64,000 nt of DNA from the NCBI RefSeq assembly GCF_036429475.1, contig NZ_CP144125.1, positions 992,001 to 1,056,000 of the forward strand. Reading direction: 5' to 3'. Under the pieces are notes generated by a model. The model was not told the DNA's origin, ran no database searches, and saw only the letters and a program-made list of their open reading frames with translations. The stretch's first letter is position 1. Each line of letters opens with the position of its first letter. Of the stretch, positions 1 through 43,985 are shown one piece after another. Origin of the DNA: Halalkalicoccus sp. CGA53. Lineage in GTDB: Archaea > Halobacteriota > Halobacteria > Halobacteriales > Halalkalicoccaceae. The translations under genes were made by a program, and so were the position numbers.

Positions 1-690
1 GGCGATCTCGAAGTGGAGTTTCACGGGGAACTCCTCGCCGATGTCGATCGTCACCTCGCCGTCGGTCGGGATCGCCTTGTTCATCTCTTTCAGGTAATCG
101 AGGCTGAACAGCGAGTGCGCCTCGCCCGGCGTGAGGTCGATCAGGTCCTCGCGATCCAGTTTGAAGTTCACGTCGTCGGTGTCGCCCTCCGCCTCGACGT
201 AGAACCGCTCCTCGGCGGTGTCGACGCCGAGCGCGATGTGGTCGCTCACCATGTCCGCGGCCTTCACCGCGCGGTTGACGTCGCGCCCTTCGAGGACCAC
301 CCTGGCCGGGAGGTCGAGGTCGGGGATGTCCGGCTCCTCCCTGATCGAGTCGGGGTCGATCAGCGCGAGAGTGTACTTGAGGCCATCGAGACGGATCGTG
401 AGTTTCCGGGTCTCCTCGTCGAGTTCGAGGTCGACGAGCTGGCCGGCGTCGGCCATCCCGACGATGTCCTCGAGCCGAGAGAGGTTCACGCCGATCGTAC
501 CGCCGTCGGCCTCGTAGGACTCGAAGGCGGACGCGGAGAGCGTGAGGTCGACCATGCCGACGTTCGCCGGGTCGACGGCGCGGATCGAGAACTCCTCCTC
601 GCCGAGCTGGATCTTGCACTCGTCGACCAGCGCACTCACGGAGTCGAGCGCCGCCCCGAGCGTGTCGGCGCTCACGATGGCCTTGAACAT
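1..690 (-). CDS. pcn: DNA polymerase sliding clamp (PCNA), 3' end cut by window
   Basis: This is the archaeal homotrimeric sliding clamp that tethers replicative polymerase, FEN1 and ligase to DNA. The reading frame opens at an ATG and gives 230 codons with no stop before the window edge. Archaeal PCNA is about 245-250 residues, so only the last 15-20 are missing. The protein begins [16 protein letters not shown] and contains the domain-linking stretch [18 protein letters not shown], both typical of haloarchaeal PCNA. It is very acidic, as expected for a halophile. It stands alone with its own promoter just upstream. Identification rests on direct sequence recognition and is secure. Confidence 0.96.
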
Positions 691-715
691 ACTGGATACG
701 GCTACGAAACGGCCG

Positions 716-724
716 TTTAAAAAG
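716..724 (-). promoter_or_regulatory. TATA box of the PCNA gene
   Basis: On the minus strand the AT block CTTTTTAAA is centred about 30 bases before the PCNA ATG. That spacing suits an archaeal TATA element driving a nearly leaderless transcript. The surrounding DNA is GC-rich, so the block stands out. Positions 725-920 upstream of it hold no convincing gene. Confidence 0.6.
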
Positions 725-920
725 CCACCTTTCCTGTACGCGCGCACGCGGGGCAGGCTGGTTCGGAGCGGTCACCGAGTGGCGGCGTTCCGTCCCCTCC
801 CGATCGCGCCGAGCGGTACGTGTATCGCACCGGTGTCTCACCGCTCGGAGAGCCTTCGAGCGCCCTCGAAGGTGACACGATCACGGGTCGGGTGTACTTT
901 CCTCGACGCGTCGCCACGGA

Positions 921-1844
921 TCACCGCGCCCCACCTTCGAGCTTTCCGAACCGCTCGAGCGTCAGCAAGCACTCGAGCGTCAGTTTCCCAACCCACTCCC
1001 GCTCGGCGGTCGGCCACGCGTCCTCGTACTGTCCCCACCCCCACGTCGGCCACCAGCCGCCGTCTCGCGCCTGTCTCTCGATGTCTTCGTCGAGAAGCCG
1101 GTCGACACGATCCGGGTACAGTCGAGCGACCGTCGTCTCCGGCGAGAAGGCGAACGCGAACGCGTACAGCTCACGAAGTTCCTCGTCCAGGTCCATCGAC
1201 CTCACCGTGCGTTCGAGCGACGTGCGGACGTCTCCGGCGAGCCTCGGCGGGAGGTGCGGGAGGGCGCGCTCCCAGCAGAGGATCGCGTAGCGCCGTCCTC
1301 GATCGTCCCCGACGACGGTCGTGTCGCGTACGTTACGAGCCGCCCGCTCCGTAACCGCCTCGAGAAACCTTTCAGAGACCGCGTCGCCCCACCTCCACAG
1401 GTATCCGAGGAGCTCCGCGCTCGGGTTCGGCCACTCCGACTCGGAGGGTGCCGTCACGGTGTCGACGTGCCACCAGACCGCGTGCGGCGCGTCGTTTACG
1501 TCCTCGTACGTCGCCGGCCAGTAGCCCTCGCGCTCCCGGTACGACTCTTCGAGGTACGCGAGCGCGGCCCGGACGAGGTCGTAGCCCGACGAGAGCTCGA
1601 GTTCGGCCGCGTACTGCAACCCGACCGACGTCGCAAGCGGCGACGACGCTTCGAGTCGAAAATCCGGCTCGAGGGCGTGTCCGAACCCACCGTCGTCGTT
1701 CTGATACTGCCGAAGCTCCTCCACGACGTCCTCGGCCGCGGCGTCCTCGAACCGATGATCGAAGAGGGAGACGTCGAGCGACCGCCCGTGTTCGTAGATC
1801 GCGGATCTCGCCCTCGTGTACCTCTCTCGTGAGAGTCCGTGCAT
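921..1844 (-). CDS. Prenyltransferase/squalene-cyclase-like alpha-toroid protein
   Basis: The product is 307 residues from the ATG chosen here. A GTG 63 bases upstream would add 21 low-complexity residues and is less likely. The protein has repeated helical units with QYQNDDGGFGHALEPDF near residue 50 and DGGWWPTWGWGQYEDAW near the C-terminus. These Gly/Trp-rich turns are characteristic of alpha/alpha-toroid folds found in terpene cyclases and protein prenyltransferases. No classical DXDD cyclase signature is evident, so enzymatic activity is not assured. It is transcribed divergently from the rlmE gene. Substrate unknown. Confidence 0.7.
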   Translation of the reverse strand: MHGLSRERYTRARSAIYEHGRSLDVSLFDHRFEDAAAEDVVEELRQYQNDDGGFGHALEPDFRLEASSPLATSVGLQYAAELELSSGYDLVRAALAYLEESYREREGYWPATYEDVNDAPHAVWWHVDTVTAPSESEWPNPSAELLGYLWRWGDAVSERFLEAVTERAARNVRDTTVVGDDRGRRYAILCWERALPHLPPRLAGDVRTSLERTVRSMDLDEELRELYAFAFAFSPETTVARLYPDRVDRLLDEDIERQARDGGWWPTWGWGQYEDAWPTAEREWVGKLTLECLLTLERFGKLEGGAR

Positions 1845-1954
1845 AGTCTCGGATCGGGGCTCCGCACGGTAGCTGTTGTCCTCGGAGGCACTCGAGTACG
1901 AAGTCACGCCTCGCGAGCGAAGCGCGTATCCGCCTCGCGGGGGTAGGGAGTGCG

Positions 1955-2719
1955 ATGAGCAACCGCGATCAGTGGTACAACAAGGCGAAACAGCAGGGCT
2001 ATCGCTCGAGGTCGGCGTACAAGCTCCAGCAGCTCGACGACCTGGAGACCGTCCTGCCCGAGGGCGGCACGGTCGTCGACCTCGGTGCCGCTCCAGGCGG
2101 CTGGCTTCAGGTCGCCGCCGAACGCGTCGGTCCCGGGGGGACGGTTCTGGGAGTGGACCTCCAACGCATCAAGGATATCGAGACCGAGACGACCGTCGAG
2201 ACGATCCGCGGCGACATCACGGACGAAGAGACCCACGAGGCGATCCGCGGACGGGTGGGTGAGGTCGACACGGTCCTCTCGGACATGGCCCCAAACATGA
2301 CCGGCGAGTACAACCTCGATCACGCGCGGTCGGTCTACCTCGCGGGGCAGGCCGCTGCCGTCGCCCGCGAGGTGCTCAAACCCGGCGGGAATCTCGTGGT
2401 AAAGGTGTTCGAGGGGCCGGATCTCGCCGAGTTCCGATCCGGATTGGAGGGCGAGTACGAGTTCGTCCGGACGACGAGCCCCGAGGCCTCGCGCAAGGAG
2501 TCCTCGGAGGTCTACCTGATCGCGAAGGGGCTGCTGACCGCGCCGGTCGGGGTAGGCGAGCAACTCACCGTCGAGGTCGAGTCGGTCGGCTCCGAGGGCG
2601 ACGGCGTCGCACAGGTCGAGGGCTTTACGGTGTTCGTTCCAGGTGCAGAGAGGGGTGAGACAGTCGAGGTGCGGATCGAGGACGTCAAACAGCGTTTCGC
2701 GTTCGCGGAGCGTCTGTAG
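1955..2719 (+). CDS. rlmE: 23S rRNA (uridine-2'-O)-methyltransferase RlmE/RrmJ with TRAM domain
   Basis: The enzyme transfers a methyl group from S-adenosylmethionine to the 2'-hydroxyl of a 23S rRNA uridine. The SAM-binding loop VVDLGAAPGGW lies near residue 40. The catalytic K-D-K-E set can be placed at the Lys of SAYKLQQLD, the Asp of SDMAPNMTG, the Lys of LVVKVFEG and the Glu of KESSEVYLIAKG. Residues from about 195 to 254 form a TRAM domain (EGDGVAQVEGFTVFVPGA), an RNA-binding module added in archaeal members. Length is 254 residues. It ends 10 bases before the convergent transporter gene. Confidence 0.93.
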   Translation: MSNRDQWYNKAKQQGYRSRSAYKLQQLDDLETVLPEGGTVVDLGAAPGGWLQVAAERVGPGGTVLGVDLQRIKDIETETTVETIRGDITDEETHEAIRGRVGEVDTVLSDMAPNMTGEYNLDHARSVYLAGQAAAVAREVLKPGGNLVVKVFEGPDLAEFRSGLEGEYEFVRTTSPEASRKESSEVYLIAKGLLTAPVGVGEQLTVEVESVGSEGDGVAQVEGFTVFVPGAERGETVEVRIEDVKQRFAFAERL

Positions 2720-2729
2720 ATACCCCGTA

Positions 2730-3446
2730 CTACCCCGGGGTCGAGACGCCAGTTTCGAGCCCACGAGAACGGACGGCACCGACGATCAGGTAGACGAACG
2801 GCGTGTCGGCGACGGCGATCAGCAGTTTGATCAGGTACTGGCCGACGATCAGCGCGAGCAGTTCGGCTACGGGAAGCACGGGACCGATGCCGAGCAGCGC
2901 CGGTGCGAGTGCGAACGCGACGAGGATGAAGACGACGGTGTCGATCGCCTGGCTCGTCGCAGTCGAACCGAGGTTGCGTAGCCAGAGTCGCTCTCTCCCC
3001 GTACGAGCGCGGATCCGGTGGAAGGCGACGACGTCCCAGTTCTGGCTGATCAGGTACGCGAGCAGCCCACCGAGGACGATGTTCGTGCTCGGACCCATTA
3101 CGGTCGCGAACGCCTCCTGATCGACGCCGGCGGGCGACGCCGGCGCGAGGATCGCGAGCCAGACGAGCGCGAGCATCGCGAGGATCGTCGCGAAGCCGAC
3201 GTTCACCATCAGCTGTGCCGGGCGCTTGCCGTACAGTTCGGCGTAGCAGTCGGTCGCGAGGAACGTGATCGCGTAGGCGATGACGCCGGCGGGAACGATC
3301 AGCTCCGGGCCGACGGGACCGGCTTCGAACGGAACCGGAAGCGCGATGATCTTCACCGCCAGGAGCTGTGCGGTGACGAGCGCCGTGACGAACAGCGCAG
3401 CGAGCGTGAGCGCGACGGCCGGCAGCGGCCCCTCGCTATCGCTCAT
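2730..3446 (-). CDS. Queuosine precursor transporter family membrane protein (YhhQ/DUF165)
   Basis: The product is 238 residues with about six hydrophobic helices. It carries the family signature around FLATDCYAELYGKRPAQ (near residue 65) and the segment LRNLGSTATSQAIDTVVF, both hallmarks of the YhhQ/DUF165 family. Bacterial members import queuosine precursors. Haloarchaea make archaeosine through the same preQ0 intermediate, so uptake of a deazapurine is a reasonable but unproven role. The start codon overlaps the 3' end of the small ribbon-helix-helix gene upstream, suggesting co-transcription and coupling. Confidence 0.87.
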   Translation of the reverse strand: MSDSEGPLPAVALTLAALFVTALVTAQLLAVKIIALPVPFEAGPVGPELIVPAGVIAYAITFLATDCYAELYGKRPAQLMVNVGFATILAMLALVWLAILAPASPAGVDQEAFATVMGPSTNIVLGGLLAYLISQNWDVVAFHRIRARTGRERLWLRNLGSTATSQAIDTVVFILVAFALAPALLGIGPVLPVAELLALIVGQYLIKLLIAVADTPFVYLIVGAVRSRGLETGVSTPG

Positions 3447-3612
3447 CGTCCAGCCTGCCGTGGCGGGCGTCTATCTCGTCGAGTAAGTCGAGGGTCTTCC
3501 TGACGGAGGTGCGGATCGCGTCGCTCCGGTTGACGAACTTCCCGTCGTCACCGACGTGCTCGTCCAGGTCGTCGAGTAGCTCCTGTGGGATCTCGACGCT
3601 GATCTTAGGCAT
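3436..3612 (-). CDS. Small ribbon-helix-helix (CopG-type) protein
   Basis: A 58-residue protein reads MPKISVEIPQELLDDLDEH followed by NRSDAIRTSVRK. The beta strand, two helices and basic loop match the ribbon-helix-helix DNA-binding fold. The last 11 bases overlap the transporter gene, so it may regulate that gene or itself. This is inferred only from the overlap. It is short but has strong codon structure. Confidence 0.8.
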   Translation of the reverse strand: MPKISVEIPQELLDDLDEHVGDDGKFVNRSDAIRTSVRKTLDLLDEIDARHGRLDDER

Positions 3613-3837
3613 GCTGGTAGGGTTGGTCGGTCGGCGTCAAGTACGCTCCGGAGAACCCTCGAGGAATATCCGGCTCTTCTCCGAAGTATATCATGGATCT
3701 GGCGGTTCCGAGACACGCGACCGCTGTGGAGCAGAGATACGTATCCAGCAATAGAGTTAACCCGATCTCGCGTGAGTTCCGTCTGTGTCATCTAGCAGAC
3801 CCGGCTCTCGATCCATCGGTGGGTGTGGAGGTGACGG

Positions 3838-4560
3838 ATGAGCCTCCTCGACAGGATCTCGTTCACGATCCGGTCCTGGCTGAACGCGCTGGTGAACCGC
3901 GTCTCCGATCCCGCGGCCGAACTCGATTACTCCTACGAACAGCTGCGCAACGAGCTCCAGCGGGTCAACCGTGCGATCGCGGACCTCACGACCCAGAAGA
4001 AACGCCTCGAACTGCACCGCGAACGGCTGCGCGCGAACGTCGAGAAACACGACGGACAGGCCAGGGAGGCGATCCGTCAGGACCGCGAGGACCTGGCCCG
4101 GCGCGCGCTCGAGAAGAAGAAGACGACGACCCACGAACTGGCCGACCTCGACGAGCAGATCGACCGGCTGCAGGCCACCCAGGACCGGATGGTCGAGCGC
4201 CAGGTCGCGCTCCGCGGCCGGATCGAGGGGTTCAGAACGCAAAAGGAGATCCTGAAGGCGCGCCACGGCGCGGCGCAGGCCTCCGCGCGTGCCGCCGAGG
4301 CGTTCACCGGCGTCGGGGGCGAACTGGGCGACGTCCAGCGAACGGTCGAGCGTGCCGCCGAACGCACGGAGGAGATGGAGGCCCGGGCCGCGGCGCTCGA
4401 GGAGCTCGAGGAGACCGGCGCGTTCGACGACATCCTCGCGAAGGGCGACGCGATCGACCGCGAACTGGAGCGACGATCGACCGAACACCGGGTCGAACAG
4501 GAGTTAGAGGAGCTGAAGATCCGGGTGGGTGGTGAGACCGAGGAGGAACTCGATCGATGA
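3838..4560 (+). CDS. PspA/IM30 family protein
   Basis: The product is 240 residues, almost entirely helical and charged, as expected for the coiled-coil PspA/Vipp1/IM30 family that assembles on stressed membranes. The N-terminus (MSLLDRISFTIRSWLNALV) is an amphipathic membrane-binding helix. Long heptad-rich segments follow (residues 25-140), then an Ala/Glu-rich stretch and a C-terminal helix. It appears monocistronic, and positions 3613-3837 upstream show no gene. Partners such as PspB or PspC are absent, as is usual in haloarchaea. Confidence 0.88.
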   Translation: MSLLDRISFTIRSWLNALVNRVSDPAAELDYSYEQLRNELQRVNRAIADLTTQKKRLELHRERLRANVEKHDGQAREAIRQDREDLARRALEKKKTTTHELADLDEQIDRLQATQDRMVERQVALRGRIEGFRTQKEILKARHGAAQASARAAEAFTGVGGELGDVQRTVERAAERTEEMEARAAALEELEETGAFDDILAKGDAIDRELERRSTEHRVEQELEELKIRVGGETEEELDR

Positions 4561-4654
4561 GTTTCGGGAGGATATCAGCCTGTTCGAAGCCCCACCGAAC
4601 CCGGACGTGCTCGCTTCGCTGCGCGTCCGGCAGGGTTCGAACCGTTCGCTCGTG

Positions 4655-4695
4655 ATGGATTTACCGCTCACGGACGTGTTCGCGGTAAAATCCAT
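4655..4695. terminator. Hairpin immediately 3' of tRNA-Pro
   Basis: The arms ATGGATTTACCGC (4655-4667) and GCGGTAAAATCCAT (4682-4695) are complementary apart from one bulged base, with a 14-nt loop. The hairpin abuts the 3' end of the minus-strand tRNA-Pro and lies after the convergent PspA gene. It could serve in 3'-end formation or tRNA trailer processing. This is inferred from position and symmetry only. Confidence 0.45.
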
Positions 4696-4767
4696 GGGAC
4701 CGCCCGGATTTGAACCGGGGTCAACGGCACCCAAGGCCGCAAGGATACCAGGCTACCCCACGGTCCC
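4695..4767 (-). tRNA. tRNA-Pro (UGG)
   Basis: The minus strand folds as a cloverleaf with a 7-bp acceptor (GGGACCG with CGGTCCC) and discriminator A. The anticodon stem GCGGC/GCCGT encloses the loop CTTGGGT, giving anticodon TGG. The T arm is CCCGG-TTCAAAT-CCGGG. There is no intron and no encoded CCA. Confidence 0.95.
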
Positions 4768-4867
4768 GTGTATCGAAGACGGCACGGCTCGTTGAAAGCG
4801 TTTCGTTCTCCTCGTCGTCTCTCGTGTGCTTCGCGCCGCTTTTATCGGCCGGTCACCTCCTCTCTCC

Positions 4868-5134
4868 ATGGTCACCGGTATCGAGGTCGCCGTCGTGCTC
4901 CTCGCGCTCGCCTTCCTCTTCGGCGCGTGGCGGATCATCCACGCCGTGAAGCCGTTCATCGTCAACGCGGTGGTCGGCCTACTCGTGCTTCTGCTCGCGA
5001 GTTGGTTCGGACTCGCGGTCGAGGTCACGCCGATCGTCCTGCTCGTCGTCGCCCTCGGGGGCGTGCCGGGGGCACTCCTCGTGCTCCTGCTCGCGGTGTT
5101 CGGCGTGGCGTTCGTCCCCGCGCTCGCTCTATAG
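4868..5134 (+). CDS. BofA-like small membrane protein
   Basis: An 88-residue protein composed of three hydrophobic helices contains the segment VKPFIVNAVVGLLVLLLASW (about residues 27-46). This segment is shared with proteins annotated as pro-sigmaK processing inhibitor BofA family. Archaea have no sigmaK, so the bacterial role cannot apply. The family resemblance is structural only. The ATG at 4868 was chosen because the upstream extension is not protein-like. The function is unknown, and a membrane location is clear. Confidence 0.72.
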   Translation: MVTGIEVAVVLLALAFLFGAWRIIHAVKPFIVNAVVGLLVLLLASWFGLAVEVTPIVLLVVALGGVPGALLVLLLAVFGVAFVPALAL

Positions 5135-5284
5135 CGCTCGGGACCGTTTCGCGGTCGCTCCGGAGTCGAACGTATAGGTATTACAAGACGTTAAACCCGC
5201 CACGGTCGAACGACGAGACGAGCCAGCGTGTCCGACCCACAGCGCTCGAAACGGCCGGGAGGCGATCGGTGAATGTAGCTCCCG

Positions 5285-5452
5285 ATGCTGGTCCTCGCCG
5301 CCCTCGCACTAGTCGTCCTCTCACCGGTGGTCGTGCTCGTCGTCGTCGAGTTTCGTCGCGAACGTGGCTCAGGTCCGGCGCAGGATCACCCAGACACCGG
5401 CGACGAGCAGCAACAGCCCCCAGTAGAGCGAGTCGCCCGGCGCGACTTTTAG
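5285..5452 (+). CDS. Possible 55-residue single-span membrane protein
   Basis: The frame encodes an N-terminal hydrophobic helix followed by an Arg- and Gln-rich tail. An AT-richer block (TATAGGTATTACAAG, about 110 bases upstream) could be a promoter. It overlaps the minus-strand small frame at 5369-5527 over 84 bases, so at most one of the two is likely to be expressed. No family is recognised and confidence is low. Confidence 0.28.
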   Translation: MLVLAALALVVLSPVVVLVVVEFRRERGSGPAQDHPDTGDEQQQPPVERVARRDF

Positions 5453-5527
5453 AAGTAGCGTGACGATCCCCGAACTCACGAGCGACCAGCCGAGCGTCGT
5501 CTGGTAGCCTCTGTCCCTCGAACTCAT
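5369..5527 (-). CDS. Small two-helix membrane protein (52 aa)
   Basis: The minus strand encodes 52 residues starting MSSRDRGYQTTLGWSLV. There is a first hydrophobic segment, a short PGDSLYWG turn, a second segment LLLLVAGVWVILRR and a stop. The alternation of two spans with a polar N-terminus and an arginine C-terminus looks like a genuine small membrane protein, more so than the overlapping plus-strand frame. It lies 39 bases from the 3' end of the helicase gene that is transcribed towards it. Function unknown. Confidence 0.5.
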   Translation of the reverse strand: MSSRDRGYQTTLGWSLVSSGIVTLLLKVAPGDSLYWGLLLLVAGVWVILRRT

Positions 5528-5566
5528 GGGTGAGAGAGCGGCGGCCGAGGAATAAGGGTTCGCCCG

Positions 5567-7618
5567 TCAGTCATCGTCTCTGAGCTGGATGTCCGCGACG
5601 ATCCCGTCTACCTCCTTCCCTTTCCTGATCCCGTCGAGGATGACGAACGCCTCCTCGGGAGAGAGGAAGTGCGTCGTTACCGCTCTGCCGAGCGGCGTCG
5701 GCGAGAAGCCGTCGATGAACCCGTACTCGAGCAGTTTTCCGATCGCGTGTTTGGTGGGCACCTCGCCGATCATCCGGTCGGTGATCGCCTTCGCGCGCTT
5801 CCCTCCCACCGTCACGTTCGCGAGCACCTCCTCGACCGCTGCCGACTCGTCGTAGACGGTGTGGACGTCCTCCATCTCGTCCTTCAGGAGACGGAACGCC
5901 ACCTCGTCCTCGGTGCCCTCCATGCTCGCGTGATACGAACAGTCGGGTTCGACCAGCAGGTAGACGACACCGCGGTCGTGGTAGTCCGGACGGCCCGCCC
6001 GCCCGAGCATCTGGTGGAACTCCTGGACCGTGAGCCACTCGATGCCCATCGCGAGCGAGTCGAAGATAACCTGCGAGGCGGGGAAGTCGACCCCGGCGGC
6101 GAGCGCGGCGGTCGTCACAACCGCTGCGATGTCGCCGTCGCCGAACATCCGCTCGACCTTCTTCCGGCGCCGGTAGTCCAGCCCCGCGTGGTACGGCGCG
6201 GCGTCGTACTCCAACCGACGGCTGATCTCGTGACAGCGCCGCCGCGAGTTCGTGAAGATTATGGTCTGACCCCGATACCCCTTCGAGGACTCGCGGTCGA
6301 ACTCCCGGCGGACGAGCTTGTTCGCCACCCGTGGTTTCTCCATCCCGTCGACGAACGTGACGTGGCGCTCGATCGGGACCGGTCGCTCCTCGAACTCGAT
6401 CAGCCGCGCCTCGAGCCGCCTCGCGAGCCACTCCGGGTTGCCGACCGTCGCCGAGAGGTAGATCCACTGCGCGCCGGCGTAGCTCTCGCGGGCGCGCGAG
6501 CGAGCCTCGCAGTACTCCTTCAACCGGGCGATCAGCCCGTCGAGACGGTGGCCCCGCTCTTCGGCCTGGAGCGTGTGGACCTCGTCGATGACGACCGTCC
6601 CGATGTCGCCCAGATCCCGCCCCGTCCGCAGCGCGTGGTCGATCCCCTCGTAGGTGCCGACGATCACGTCCGCCGTCGGGTCGAATCGGGTGCCGTCGTC
6701 GCGCACCCGGCTCGCGCCGACACGGATCGTCACCTCCGCGAGCTCGCCGTAGGTATCGAGAAAGTCCTCGTGTTTCTGGTTCGCGAGCGCGACCAGCGGG
6801 ACAAGAAAGAGCACCTTTCCCTTGCCTCTCAGTACGCGATCGATCCCCGCGAGCTCGCCGACGAGCGTCTTCCCGGTCGCGGTGGCGCTCACCACCAGCT
6901 GATCGTCGCCGTCCAGGAGACCGTTCCGTACCGATAGGCTCTGGACTGGGAGCAGGGTCTCGAACCGGTCCTCGACGAGTTCTTTCAGTTCCGGATGCAG
7001 GTCGAGCGAGTCCACCCGAACCGGATCGACGTCCTCGACCGTGGCACCGATCTCGTCGAACTTCGTCAGATCCGGGTCGAGCCTGCCCTTAAGCAGGTTC
7101 TTCAGCCGCTCTAGGTCCTGGACCTGGAGCAGGAGCTCCTCCAGCCGGTCCTGTGCGGCGCTCGTCAGCCCGCCGTGGTGGGCGAGCTCGCGGTCGAGCT
7201 CGACGAGCGCACAGTCCGGACAGATCTCCTCTCTGTCCGTCTTGATCGCCGTCTCCGAGGTGATCGGCGAGTACCGCCCGTGCGAGGCACAGTACCGACA
7301 GGTCCGGACGACCGTCGCCTCCAACTGGTATCCCTCGAGCATCTCACGGAGTTCGGCGCGTCCGCTCCGCGAGGTCTGCTCGGAGATCCGGATCCGGGAC
7401 GCCCTGCGGGCGAGGTCGACGAACTCGCTCGGATCGCGCGGATCGCGGCCGCTCTCGGCTTTGACTCCGAACTTCCCGGGCCGTGGTCCCGCCGCCGTCT
7501 CCTTCAGCTTGAGGACGGCCTGGAAGACGCGCTCGCCGCCACGGGTGACGACGGCGAGGTAGTCGTCGCCGACCTCGTGGAGGAAGAGCGTGTCCACGCG
7601 TGGGACCTGTTTCGACAC
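5567..7618 (-). CDS. Large Ski2-like DEAD/DEAH helicase with zinc-binding N-terminal region
   Basis: The open frame extends far upstream, but sensible protein starts at the GTG at 7618, giving 683 residues. An N-terminal region of about 230 residues, a type seen in haloarchaeal helicases, holds a CxxC-x22-CxxC zinc site at Cys107/110/133/136. The helicase core follows: Walker A SATATGKTLVGEL, DEVH box VIDEVHTL, motif III YLSATVGN, then HAGLDYRRRKKVE and the motif VI arginine segment QMLGRAGRPDYHDRG. The C-terminus contains a winged-helix-like part (TKHAIGKLLEYGFIDG). It most resembles Ski2/Hel308-type enzymes that remodel RNA or stalled forks. The exact substrate is unknown. It is divergent from the luciferase-like gene. 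Confidence 0.88.
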   Translation of the reverse strand: MSKQVPRVDTLFLHEVGDDYLAVVTRGGERVFQAVLKLKETAAGPRPGKFGVKAESGRDPRDPSEFVDLARRASRIRISEQTSRSGRAELREMLEGYQLEATVVRTCRYCASHGRYSPITSETAIKTDREEICPDCALVELDRELAHHGGLTSAAQDRLEELLLQVQDLERLKNLLKGRLDPDLTKFDEIGATVEDVDPVRVDSLDLHPELKELVEDRFETLLPVQSLSVRNGLLDGDDQLVVSATATGKTLVGELAGIDRVLRGKGKVLFLVPLVALANQKHEDFLDTYGELAEVTIRVGASRVRDDGTRFDPTADVIVGTYEGIDHALRTGRDLGDIGTVVIDEVHTLQAEERGHRLDGLIARLKEYCEARSRARESYAGAQWIYLSATVGNPEWLARRLEARLIEFEERPVPIERHVTFVDGMEKPRVANKLVRREFDRESSKGYRGQTIIFTNSRRRCHEISRRLEYDAAPYHAGLDYRRRKKVERMFGDGDIAAVVTTAALAAGVDFPASQVIFDSLAMGIEWLTVQEFHQMLGRAGRPDYHDRGVVYLLVEPDCSYHASMEGTEDEVAFRLLKDEMEDVHTVYDESAAVEEVLANVTVGGKRAKAITDRMIGEVPTKHAIGKLLEYGFIDGFSPTPLGRAVTTHFLSPEEAFVILDGIRKGKEVDGIVADIQLRDDD

Positions 7619-7705
7619 GTTCGGTGAGATGCGGTGAGGGTATTTCAGCGATTCGACCTCGCGAACGGGGCGCTCCGTTATCCCCCCGCCCGCCGTATCT
7701 CTCCC

Positions 7706-8155
7706 ATGGTTTCTGTGGGTTCCGATCGGGCGGAGATCGAAGCGACGGTCGACCGTCTGGTGCGCGAGGTAAGCGAGTGGGAACACGTCACCGCCGGCGA
7801 ACACCGCTTCGGCGGGACCGAGTTCCGCGTCGGCCCGCGCGAGATCGGCCACGTCCACTCGTGGGGGATGCTCGACATCGCGTACCTCGGTGCGTTGCGC
7901 GACGCCCTCGTCGAGGAGGGTCACACCGGCGTCCACCACCTCCTGACGGAATCGGGGTGGACGACGTTCCACATCACCGCCGAAGCGGACTACGACCACG
8001 CCCGGTGGCTCCTCCGGCTGTCGTACCTCTACCACGTGAACACCCTGCGTCGGACCGCTGCAGGCGCCGAGGAGTTCGCGGACGTGGATGTCGAAACGGA
8101 ACTCGGGGCGATGGGTCCGAGCGAACCCGTTCGCGCGGCGTTCGACCGACGCTGA
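7706..8155 (+). CDS. Luciferase-domain-like protein (DUF5519 type)
   Basis: A 149-residue protein contains FGGTEFRVGPREIGHVHSWG, then HHLLTESGWTTFHITAEADY and a C-terminal LRLSYLYHVNTLR. The conserved His/Trp-rich pattern matches proteins annotated as luciferase-domain or DUF5519 in haloarchaea and bacteria. No catalytic chemistry is established for these. The ATG at 7706 follows a Pro-rich non-coding leader. It shares an upstream region with the helicase gene. Confidence 0.65.
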   Translation: MVSVGSDRAEIEATVDRLVREVSEWEHVTAGEHRFGGTEFRVGPREIGHVHSWGMLDIAYLGALRDALVEEGHTGVHHLLTESGWTTFHITAEADYDHARWLLRLSYLYHVNTLRRTAAGAEEFADVDVETELGAMGPSEPVRAAFDRR

Positions 8156-40652: not shown

Positions 40653-40886
40653 TCAGTAGTTCCGATCCGACACTTCCGCGGCGATCGAGGCCGCTCGTTC
40701 GTAGGCATCGTCGAAACGATCGATCTCGTCTAACCGGATCCAGCGACTTGAGAACCCCCGCCCGCACCCCTCTTCCGGATCGCAGTCGATGATTACCTTC
40801 CATCCAGTCGACTCCTCTTTCAGGCCATACAGGATTCGCTCGCCACATCTGGGACAGCGTGCGGACTCGTGTGGATAACGGGGCAT
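40653..40886 (-). CDS. Small zinc-ribbon protein
   Basis: A 77-residue protein has CPRCGERI near residue 11 and CDPEEGCGRG near residue 35, four cysteines spaced as in a zinc ribbon. Its helical C-terminus is acidic and aromatic (WIRLDEIDRFDDAYERAA). It is divergent from the EVE-McrB gene, which starts 92 bases away. Function unknown. It might be part of the defence island or a regulator of it. Confidence 0.62.
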   Translation of the reverse strand: MPRYPHESARCPRCGERILYGLKEESTGWKVIIDCDPEEGCGRGFSSRWIRLDEIDRFDDAYERAASIAAEVSDRNY

Positions 40887-40977: not shown

Positions 40978-42515
40978 ATGTCCTACGATGGCCCTCGGAT
41001 ATTCCAGGCGCCGTACGGGAACCGAGCGGCGCAGGAGAACTTCGATCGAACCGTTATCGAGGGCGTGTTGGCAGACCGGCTCCGAGAGCACACTGACCGC
41101 GCCTTCGAGACGGATCGAGTGCGACTGTGGGGGACGAAGAAGACGGTAAAGGGAAAGTGGAGGAGAATCAACCCTGGCGATTTCCTGATCTTCTACCGTA
41201 ACGGCACGTACGAATACGCGGCTGAGGTCATCGACACCGAGGAAAACGAATCTCTGGGCAGGATCGTCTGGCCGAATCACGAGGATGGTAGCCCGTGGAT
41301 CTGCATCGTCTACCTGGAGGAGCCGATCGAACTCGGCGTCGATTCGAGCCTCGTTCACGATCTCGCGGGATACGATATCGACTATCCGATGGGTTTCAGC
41401 CCGCTGAGCGATATAGGAATCGGCGGTATCAGGGGGAAGTTCGGCTCGGTCGAGGAGTTCGTCTACGGCTCCGTATCCGACTCGGGAGGGTCCCGCATCG
41501 ACGTCGATGGGCAGGTCGAAGCGAGTATTCCGGAGTCGATCCTATCGGGATTGTACTTCCCCGCCGGAAGCGGACCGAACTCGTCGGACAGGTCACCGCC
41601 GCGATCAACGCCGGCAAACACGTCGTCTTCACCGGTCCGCCGGGGACGGGAAAAACCGAGATCGCGCGCCGGGTGTGTAAACACCTGTCGAGGGGCCACG
41701 ACGAACTCTATACGGGCTATCGACTCACGACGGCGACGGCGGACTGGTCGACGTTCGAGACCGTTGGCGGCTACATGCCCGAGGAGGCGGGCGATGGCGA
41801 ATTGACGTTCGAACCGGGCCAGGTGCTCCGGCGGTTCAAGCGAGGCGGCGAACAGCGGAACGAGCTGCTGATCGTCGACGAGATCAACCGCGCGGACATC
41901 GACAAGTCGTTCGGACAGCTGTTCACGCTGCTCTCGGGCCAGGCGGTTCAGCTGCCGTACAAGCGGGAGGGCGAGGAGATCGAGATCCTACCGGCCGATC
42001 GGATCGACGGGGAGCCGAGCGCACACGAGTACGTCGTTCCGACGTCGTGGCGGATCCTGGCGACGATGAACAGTTACGACAAGACCTCGCTCTACGAGCT
42101 CTCGTACGCGTTCATGCGTCGGTTCGCGTTCATCCACGTTGATGCACCCGAAATCCCCGAGGACTCGGATCTACAGGTCGAACTACTCGAATCGTACGTC
42201 GACATGTGGGGAGTCGAACCGGACGAAGACGTGCTCCGGATCATCGGCGGGGTGTGGCGGGCGACCAACGCGACCGTCGAGGGTCGCAAGATCGGTCCCG
42301 CTATCGTCCGAGACATGCTCGCACACGTGTTCGAGTCGGAGGAGGATGTCGAGACGGCGAGTGCACAGGCCGTGACGAACTACGTGTTCCCACAGTTGGA
42401 GGGCGTCCCCCGTCGGGAACGGATCGTCAGCGAGATAGCGACGGTCGACGGAATAGACGAGAGTCGGCTGAAACGACTGGGACGCGACGTGCTGGGGGTC
42501 AGCGTAGATGGATAG
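40978..42515 (+). pseudogene. EVE-domain McrB-type AAA protein, split by a frameshift
   Basis: The first frame (40978 to about 41562) encodes an EVE/PUA-like domain (VRLWGTKKTVKGKWRRINPG, DFLIFYRNGTYEYAAEVI, LGRIVWPNHEDGSPW) of the kind that reads modified bases. The second frame, one base back, continues as RKRTELVGQVTAAINAGKHV to a McrB-like motor: Walker A GPPGTGKTEIARRV, Walker B LLIVDEINRADIDKSFGQL and the McrB signature ATMNSYD. The halves join if one C is added to the run of four at 41559-41562, giving about 513 residues. This may be a true inactivating deletion, a programmed frameshift or a sequencing error. The nuclease partner follows with an 8-base overlap. Confidence 0.82.
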
Positions 42516-43851
42516 AGGAGAACTCCTCGAACGCCTGACGCAGGACATCCTGGCGTACGTGATGCACGGGGGATTCTCCGAGGATCGTCTGGCGAGCGAG
42601 ATCAAACCCGACGGCTTGGATGAGCGTTTCGACGACTACGAGAGCCTGATCCGACTCCACTTCGTCCTCCGACCGGACGTCGTCAACTTCGTCGAAGCGC
42701 TCCCGCAGCGTCTACGTAGCGTAAAGACCCAGACGAAGAACACGATCAGGATGAGTCGGGGACGGATCGATGGACGCATCGACTGGTCAGCGACTGTTCG
42801 AAAACGATACTCGACGAACCCGCGCGACACCTCGTTGTTCGTCTGCCGGAACCGATCGGAGAGCTACGACATCGACGAGAACGTCGTCCTCAAACGACTC
42901 CTATCGGTCATCTACACGACGCTGACGGACTGCGAACGGTACCTCCTGCGGGAGTACGAGTGGGTCACCGACCGGTGGCGAGAGAACCTTGAGCTGGTCG
43001 ATACGATGATCGACCTGTTCGAGCGGAACGTCCACGTTACGAGGATCAGGGATCCCGAGGAGTACGAACCGACCGAACGGATGTTGCAGCGGACGGCGGA
43101 CTCCAGAGAGCCGATCTATCGCGAGGCGGTAGAGCTCACACGGACGTATCGTAGCAGTCTCGCGGGCGAGGAGGTAGCGATCCGTGAACTGCTGGACGAA
43201 ACGGCGATTACGCCGAACGACGAGGAGACGCTGCTTGAACTCTTCGTTCTGTTTCGGTTCATCGCGACGATAGAACGGCTTGAAAACGAGGAGTTCCGGC
43301 TCCGAACCATCGAATCCGGATCGCAGGAGGTCGCCCGGATGGCGAGCGGTGATCGGGAGATCGTGCTGTATCACGACAGCTCCGCGGGCGACCGGGGGCT
43401 CAGGTTCGCGTCGTCGGAGCCCGACAAGGAACGGTCGAAGCTCACCCGTGCGGAGATGGTGAAACGGGAAGCCCGCGAGGTGACGGCGGAGTACTTCGGA
43501 ACGGAGATCTCGTCGGTCTGGACGAAACGGCCCGATGTGATCGTCCTCGAAATCCAAGGTGACGAACGGACGGAGTATCTGATAACGGAGATCAAGAACT
43601 CGACGAGGAAGGAGACGATCCAGCAGGGGATCGAGGAGACGCTTGAGTATCTCGCGTTCCTCCAGCAGGACCGAAAGTTCGTCTACGAGAAGGACACGGA
43701 CTACTTCGGAACGGGCTGGAATGGCCTCTTGGTGATTCAGGACATCGAGGAAGTGACGAGGGGTCTTCGGGATCAGCGGTCGATCCGAATCCTGCAGGCT
43801 ACGGAGGTCGAGGACAGGCTCGAAGAGATCCTACGAAACGTCGCACTATGA
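42508..43851 (+). CDS. McrC-like PD-(D/E)XK nuclease partner
   Basis: A 447-residue protein. Residues 85-135 (RGRIDGRIDWSATVRKRYST, then YDIDENVVLKRLLSVI) resemble the DUF2357-type region found in proteins encoded with McrB-like motors. The nuclease centre is RPDVIVLEI with Asp343 and TEYLITEIKNS with Glu361 and Lys363, a standard PD-(D/E)XK arrangement. With the EVE-McrB gene upstream (overlapping start) it forms a two-gene modification-dependent restriction system. Base composition is visibly more AT-rich than the flanks, which suggests transfer. Its frame is intact. Confidence 0.82.
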   Translation: MDRGELLERLTQDILAYVMHGGFSEDRLASEIKPDGLDERFDDYESLIRLHFVLRPDVVNFVEALPQRLRSVKTQTKNTIRMSRGRIDGRIDWSATVRKRYSTNPRDTSLFVCRNRSESYDIDENVVLKRLLSVIYTTLTDCERYLLREYEWVTDRWRENLELVDTMIDLFERNVHVTRIRDPEEYEPTERMLQRTADSREPIYREAVELTRTYRSSLAGEEVAIRELLDETAITPNDEETLLELFVLFRFIATIERLENEEFRLRTIESGSQEVARMASGDREIVLYHDSSAGDRGLRFASSEPDKERSKLTRAEMVKREAREVTAEYFGTEISSVWTKRPDVIVLEIQGDERTEYLITEIKNSTRKETIQQGIEETLEYLAFLQQDRKFVYEKDTDYFGTGWNGLLVIQDIEEVTRGLRDQRSIRILQATEVEDRLEEILRNVAL

Positions 43852-43880: not shown

Positions 43881-43985
43881 CAGCGAAAGCGCCTGCAGGC
43901 GGGTATCGACGAGGCCGTCTACGACCTGTTCGACCTCATCGAGGAGGAACGACGGGTGATCGAGGAGTATCTGGAGGTGTTCTGA
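43881..43985 (+). pseudogene. C-terminal remnant of a restriction/methylase-like protein
   Basis: A 34-codon open stretch, preceded in frame by a stop, ends with GIDEAVYDLFDLIEEERRV and a final EYLEVF before a stop. This C-terminus is of the kind found at the end of haloarchaeal N6-adenine methylase/restriction proteins, in which an IDEAVYDLY-like helix closes the polypeptide. No upstream part survives. The nuclease gene ends in an ATGA overlap with a ten-codon frame, so a third gene was probably deleted here. This is inferred from memory of the family ending. Confidence 0.5.

What the first reader, a model, noticed from the sequence alone, without database searches (positions are those of the whole stretch)
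40978..43851. EVE-McrB plus PD-(D/E)XK nuclease: a two-gene modification-dependent restriction system
An EVE/PUA-like base-reading domain is fused to a McrB-type AAA motor and followed, with an 8-base overlap, by a nuclease whose N-terminal part is DUF2357-like rather than classical McrC. Known relatives include McrBC and the EVE-containing type IV systems. This haloarchaeal arrangement, in an AT-rich island, could recognise modified phage DNA or RNA and is the best candidate defence system here.
Basis: partly seen in the sequence, partly recalled or inferred. Interest (0 to 1): 0.72.

Follow-up and report, generated by a model that had tools for sequence, protein, structure and literature searches.

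The report
Broken haloarchaeal YTH-type McrBC restriction locus
A salt-loving archaeon carries a two-gene McrBC-type anti-invader system, with a third small gene beside it that had no assigned role, whose sensor domain looks like known readers of DNA methylated on adenine; this copy is broken by a one-base deletion, but its intact relatives are common in haloarchaea and tend to be absent from genomes that methylate their own adenines.

Summary
A PUA-superfamily reader domain (40978-41568), a McrB-type AAA+ motor (about 41562-42515) and a PD-(D/E)XK nuclease (42508-43851, 8-base overlap) are present. However, reader and motor are not fused in this window: a 1-base deletion near 41572 puts them in different frames, and the motor has no usable start of its own. 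In all intact relatives examined they form one ORF.

Its profile and its predicted fold both pick the Thermococcus gammatolerans McrB N-domain (6mA-DNA reader; Foldseek 1.6e-6, Z 15.2). The "DUF2357 rather than classical McrC" contrast is wrong, because DUF2357 is the classical McrC N-domain; this nuclease passes no McrC or DUF2357 profile.

A divergent zinc-ribbon gene (40656-40886, minus) accompanies every compact YTH-McrB locus with adequate flanks, and none of the long-N-terminus relatives examined. Genomes with the compact system are depleted of N6-adenine methylases (8/28 against 226/364, p=0.001; within-family OR 0.15, p=4e-4); a 5mC methylase shows no significant depletion (p=0.43).

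Best reading: a decayed member of a haloarchaeal YTH-McrBC clade that restricts N6-methyladenine DNA. New variant of a known kind.

The parts
   Evidence: alignment of 23 copies with C11, C14, E25, W29, C35 and D59 invariant; present in every compact-type locus with adequate flank; dN/dS 0.14 against L033
40887..40977 (.). 91-bp intergenic region between the divergent genes; length conserved (mostly 77-105 bp), with AT-rich, TATA-like stretches on both sides in many relatives
   Evidence: promoter role inferred
40978..41568 (+). YTH/EVE-like (PUA superfamily) modified-base reader domain; its frame runs on out of register to a stop at 41803-41805
   Evidence: PDB profile hit to the TgMcrB N-domain E=3.3e-4; AF2 model pLDDT 76, Foldseek 6p0f 1.6e-6, VIA Z 15.2
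41566..41577 (+). site of the 1-base deletion (aligner places it at 41572/41573) that separates reader and motor frames
   Evidence: DNA alignment with L033 and L034; frames
41562..42515 (+). McrB-type AAA+ GTPase domain (GPPGTGKT, DEINR, MNSYD = NxxD, FMRRF)
   Evidence: AAA_5 1.2e-16; alignment; McrB structures 6ut3 and 6hz4
42508..43851 (+). divergent McrC-position nuclease, helical N-terminal half plus PD-(D/E)XK domain (residues about 235-447)
   Evidence: invariant catalytic motif; VIA matches Can2 Z 10.1, E. coli McrC nuclease 6hz4_N Z 8.2; intact ORF; dN/dS 0.08
43884..43985 (+). remnant in the position where the two closest relatives keep the C-terminus of a PglX/BREX-like adenine-specific DNA methyltransferase
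   Evidence: aligns with the L033/L034 remnants at about 50% over 26-28 residues; the L033 remnant is 68-75% identical to the C-termini of plasmid DNA methyltransferases/PglX

Best explanation
The locus is a recently broken member of a haloarchaeal clade of YTH-type McrBC (type IV) restriction systems. In intact relatives, one polypeptide carries a YTH-like reader and a McrB GTPase motor. A small divergent zinc-ribbon protein, sharing a roughly 90-bp intergenic region, most likely regulates the operon. Because the target is 6mA, hosts that methylate their own adenines tend not to keep the system. In this genome a 1-base deletion between reader and motor has uncoupled them, so the system should be inactive unless the base call is wrong. 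Shown here: domains, frames, conservation, depletion statistics. Inferred: 6mA binding, cleavage, the zinc protein's role.
For: Reader: profile and fold both place the TgMcrB N-domain first, and that domain is a YTH fold that targets 6mA DNA (PMC7680126). Trp51, Trp98 and Trp107 are invariant. Motor: NxxD motif invariant and McrB structures hit. Nuclease. Fusion in relatives. 6mA-methylase (PF02384) depletion in compact-system genomes: 8/28 against 226/364, p=0.001; within-family Mantel-Haenszel OR 0.15, p=4e-4; the other genomes with a relative of the nuclease have it in 67/101; 5mC methylase PF00145 control 5/15 against 90/201, p=0.43. Remnant of an adenine methylase beside the locus in the two closest relatives. 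Purifying selection on all four coding segments, w 0.08-0.14 against L033. Zinc gene.
Against: No biochemistry. Several compact-system genomes do carry N6 methylases, including the closest intact relative G007. The effect weakens at a stricter cut-off (E<=1e-20: 5/28 against 141/364, p=0.027). The 5mC control covers only 15 compact-system genomes. The nuclease fails all McrC profiles, its N-terminal half was modelled poorly, and hhalign to classical McrC is weak. Only one class of adenine methylase was counted.
Confidence: 0.68

Rival explanations
1. The reader is an EVE-type domain that reads modified cytosine (5mC, 5hmC or 4mC), as the first reader's EVE label would suggest.
For: Pfam EVE is the commonest, though sub-threshold, Pfam hit of the domain (5 of 18 members, best E 0.038). 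EVE and YTH are hard to separate by sequence in this group (PMC7641849).
Against: The fold ranking puts TgMcrB-N (Z 15.2) and YTH domains (about 9) in nearly all of the top rows. Depletion is seen for N6 methylases and is not significant for 5mC methylases.
Confidence: 0.15
2. The reader senses N6-methyladenosine in RNA, making this an RNA-targeting system like that proposed for CoCoNuTs.
For: Eukaryotic YTH domains that match the fold are m6A-RNA readers.
Against: The closest match is a DNA-reading McrB. The NxxD motif and two-gene layout are those of DNA-targeting McrBC, not the NxD branch (PMC11090510). Depletion of DNA adenine methylases would not be expected.
Confidence: 0.07
3. The frameshift is a sequencing error, and the window holds an intact, working fusion.
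For: All segments are under purifying selection and nothing else in the operon is broken. The rest of the 2-contig assembly could not be checked for errors.
Against: The site is not a homopolymer. Independent decay of the same locus is seen in G005 (frameshift in mcrB and a stop in the nuclease).
Confidence: 0.3
4. A programmed -1 frameshift joins the two frames here.
For: The required shift is -1.
Against: No canonical slippery heptamer in the overlap by inspection, and the intact relatives examined read through in frame.
Confidence: 0.03

Closest known systems
Thermococcus gammatolerans McrBC (YTH-McrB + McrC; PDB 6p0f, 6p0g, 6ut3-6ut8)
E. coli McrBC
   Same: NxxD GTPase motif and nuclease fold (6hz4_N Z 8.2)
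   Different: E. coli reader is DUF3578 for modified cytosine; McrC profiles (PF10117, PF09823) do not match here
AAA + PD-(D/E)XK pair of Archaeoglobus profundus pleomorphic provirus 1 (BK065154, gp03-gp02)
   Same: same fused reader and motor (29% identity over 86% of L057; reader profile E 1e-17) followed by a PD-(D/E)XK gene
   Different: carried by a pleolipovirus-like provirus; nuclease not detectably homologous; no zinc-ribbon gene noted
Haloferax volcanii Mrr
   Same: haloarchaeal type IV enzyme that restricts adenine-methylated DNA (PMC7776575)
   Different: single-protein Mrr, no McrB motor

Membership tests
McrBC type IV restriction systems | McrB-type AAA+ GTPase with Walker A/B and Nx(xx)D signature | tested here: met
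   GPPGTGKT, DEINR and MNSYD (NxxD); N170 and D173 invariant in 15 sequences; McrB PDB hits
McrBC type IV restriction systems | specificity domain fused to the GTPase | tested here: not met
   not met in this copy (frameshift); met in relatives
McrBC type IV restriction systems | partner gene with PD-(D/E)XK nuclease | tested here: met
   invariant motif, fold matches
McrBC type IV restriction systems | McrC N-terminal DUF2357 / McrBC family profile | tested here: inconclusive
   no PF09823 or PF10117 hit; hhalign to haloarchaeal PF10117 McrC E 0.008 but probability 4.9%; N-half of the model is poor
YTH domain | PUA-type fold with YTH topology, nearest to m6A readers | tested here: met
   Foldseek and VIA rank TgMcrB-N first, with YTH domains filling most of the next rows
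YTH domain | aromatic cage for the methylated base | tested here: inconclusive
   W51, W98 and W107 invariant; W51 aligns with the TgMcrB FWG Trp; cage geometry not examined
YTH domain | binding of N6-methyladenine | not testable with these tools
   only indirect support from methylase depletion
EVE domain (PF01878) | Pfam EVE profile above cut-off | tested here: not met
   11.9 bits against a cut-off of 23 in the window copy
CoCoNuT systems | NxD GTPase motif | tested here: not met
   motif is NxxD (definition in PMC11090510)

The most novel reading that the evidence does not exclude
The compact clade is a three-gene, 6mA-directed immune module in which a dedicated zinc-ribbon protein controls a YTH-McrB/divergent-McrC effector. 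Its acquisition shapes host epigenomes by selecting against resident adenine methylases (or the reverse), with dead methylase fragments left beside some loci.
Probability: 0.35. Interest if true: 0.65.

Novelty: new variant of a known kind. Interest (0 to 1): 0.5.

Why it matters
The plasmid records sampled annotate these proteins only as "hypothetical protein" and "AAA/MoxR family ATPase", and Pfam, NCBIfam and PADLOC models do not recognise the nuclease. About 7% of the haloarchaeal genomes sampled carry the compact system. If it restricts adenine-methylated DNA, it would add to Mrr a second barrier to E. coli-made plasmids in haloarchaea. It would also give a natural test of how a modification-dependent nuclease limits which methylases a genome can hold. 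The zinc-ribbon partner is a concrete gene to delete.

Tried and rejected
Viral contigs: no relative of the nuclease found in IMG/VR with the patterns used. Zinc-ribbon in phage and plasmid records: none found by tblastn (different query copies were used). Nuclease against PDB sequences and Pfam: nothing significant. Profile comparison with haloarchaeal classical McrC (A6), long PF10117 proteins (A7) and the one DUF2357 protein found (L147): weak or nothing. Foldseek on the nuclease model gave no significant match; only the VIA realignment was informative. Sequence comparison with the provirus nuclease: no similarity. Programmed frameshift: considered and rejected.

Full report
What is in the sequence. 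The window is a haloarchaeal chromosome segment (G000:C2:992001-1056000 of a 4.04-Mb, 2-contig genome). Three open frames occupy 40978-43851. The first, from ATG 40978, encodes a reader domain and runs to a stop at 41803-41805. The second is a McrB-type AAA frame ending at 42515. The third is a 447-aa nuclease starting at 42508, an 8-base overlap. Alignment with the two nearest homologues (G007 = L033; G005 = L034) shows a single missing base, placed by the aligner at 41572/41573 in a poorly conserved linker. In every relative examined with an unbroken mcrB gene of the compact type, reader and motor are one ORF. G005 carries different lesions: a frameshift in mcrB and a TAG in the nuclease. 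So 'fused' is true of the family and false of this copy.

Is the copy dead? All four coding segments show strong purifying selection between the window and L033 (dN/dS zinc 0.14, reader 0.13, motor 0.14, nuclease 0.08), so the lesion is recent or an error. The site is not a homopolymer, and I saw no canonical slippery heptamer (inspection).

Pfam EVE is reached only below threshold (best E 0.038 among 18 members; 0.23 for the window). A profile of 18 homologues finds the N-domain of Thermococcus gammatolerans McrB in PDB sequences (E 3.3e-4). An AlphaFold2 model (pLDDT 76, pTM 0.71) matches the same structure first (Foldseek 1.6e-6; VIA Z 15.2, 2.4-2.5 A over 149-151 residues). Archaeal PUA-type proteins and YTH domains follow at Z about 8-10. 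That McrB domain is a YTH fold that targets 6mA DNA (PMC7680126; PMC7897488). Trp51, Trp98 and Trp107 are invariant. I therefore call the domain YTH-like; EVE and YTH are hard to separate by sequence in McrB fusions (PMC7641849).

The motor has Walker A, Walker B and an invariant NxxD motif (MNSYD) typical of McrB, not the NxD of CoCoNuTs (PMC11090510). It matches solved McrB structures at 1e-11 to 1e-13.

The nuclease is invisible to Pfam, NCBIfam, PADLOC and PHROGs. PF10117 and PF09823 find nothing in this genome. Yet P342-D343...E361-x-K363 is invariant in two alignments. The C-terminal half of an otherwise poor model (pLDDT 63) aligns with PD-(D/E)XK nucleases, including Can2 (Z 10.1) and the E. 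coli McrC nuclease domain (Z 8.2). The N-terminal half may correspond to DUF2357 (hhalign E 0.008 but probability only 5%).

Distribution. In a sample of 392 genomes of the order, 129 have a relative of the nuclease. HMM survey of flanks splits those read into compact loci (one 200-aa reader plus motor, about 510 aa; nuclease 55-86% identical), long-N-terminus loci (nuclease roughly 50-57%), and a distant type (about 34%), which includes a second system on contig C1 of this same genome (L036). Outside the order only one distant match appeared in a phylum-wide sample (G466); two nanohaloarchaeal MAG contigs also carry relatives (L078, L099).

A conserved zinc-ribbon gene. Immediately upstream and divergent lies a gene of about 75 codons with invariant Cys11, Cys14, Cys35 (and a nearly invariant Cys41), Trp29 and Asp59. 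It is present in every compact locus with adequate flanking DNA: displaced by an insertion in L040, on the other side in L053, and recovered on another contig for G041. It is absent from the long and distant loci examined, and from the intermediate locus L121. The spacer is mostly 77-105 bp. Orphan copies occur in clusters of small ORFs that look mobile. A small haloarchaeal CPxCG protein, Brz, regulates its neighbouring gene (PMC2253796), so a regulatory role is the simplest guess; it is inference.

A test of the 6mA hypothesis. If the compact system cuts 6mA DNA, genomes making 6mA should seldom carry it. The prediction and the E-value cut-off were set before the methylase search; the strict cut-off, stratified test and 5mC control were added after seeing its result. 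PF02384 (N6 methylases) at E<=1e-8 is found in 234 of 392 genomes, but in only 8 of 28 compact-system genomes against 226 of 364 others (Fisher p=0.001). Within families, among nuclease-positive genomes, the Mantel-Haenszel odds ratio is 0.15 (p=4e-4), and a within-family permutation including genome size gives p=0.001. The other nuclease-positive genomes have it at the normal rate (67/101). The 5mC methylase PF00145, a control on 216 genomes, shows 5/15 against 90/201 (p=0.43), while PF02384 in the same subset shows 4/15 against 129/201 (p=0.006). Limits: only one adenine-methylase family was counted, no species-level phylogeny was used, exceptions exist (G007 and G372 carry the system and strong methylases), the effect is weaker at E<=1e-20 (p=0.027), and the control has low power. 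In L033 and L034 the nuclease is followed directly by the C-terminal remnant of a PglX-like adenine methylase, and the window keeps a short related fragment.

Verdict. This is a decayed copy of a widespread, unannotated haloarchaeal YTH-McrBC clade, most likely directed at N6-methyladenine DNA. It works like TgMcrBC; strict membership in McrBC is met for motor and nuclease fold and unresolved for the McrC N-domain. The architecture is a new variant of a known kind. Evidence for 6mA targeting is correlational and structural, not biochemical.

Noticed in passing
L153 (BK065154.1) 4842-7960: Archaeoglobus profundus pleomorphic provirus 1 encodes a fused YTH-McrB homologue (29% identity over 86%) followed by a PD-(D/E)XK gene: a virus carrying a McrBC-like pair.
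   Followed up: partly
L102-L106, L109, L112 (genomes G196, G343, G390, G181, G045, G236): Orphan relatives of the zinc-ribbon gene sit in a conserved cluster of about ten small ORFs; in G045, G343 and G236 a type I HsdM-like N6 methylase lies within a few kb.
   Followed up: partly
L036 (G000:C1:150000-166000): Second, diverged McrB/nuclease pair in the same genome with a very long N-terminal region, next to a RecB/UvrD-like helicase-nuclease gene.
   Followed up: partly
L078 and L099: Nanohaloarchaeal MAG contigs carry relatives of the pair: transfer to episymbionts or binning error.
   Followed up: no
L154 (NZ_CP034941) 374-6004: A long-type system on a Halorubrum megaplasmid lies close to a DNA adenine methylase gene, unlike the compact type's tendency.
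   Followed up: no
L034 (G005) 4361-8143: Close relative independently broken: frameshift in mcrB, stop in the nuclease, and two methylase C-terminal fragments downstream.
   Followed up: yes
L089, L092, L097, L100, L101: Several haloarchaeal genomes hold fragments of the nuclease gene (Natronococcus jeotgali on several contigs), suggesting frequent decay or recombination of these loci.
   Followed up: no
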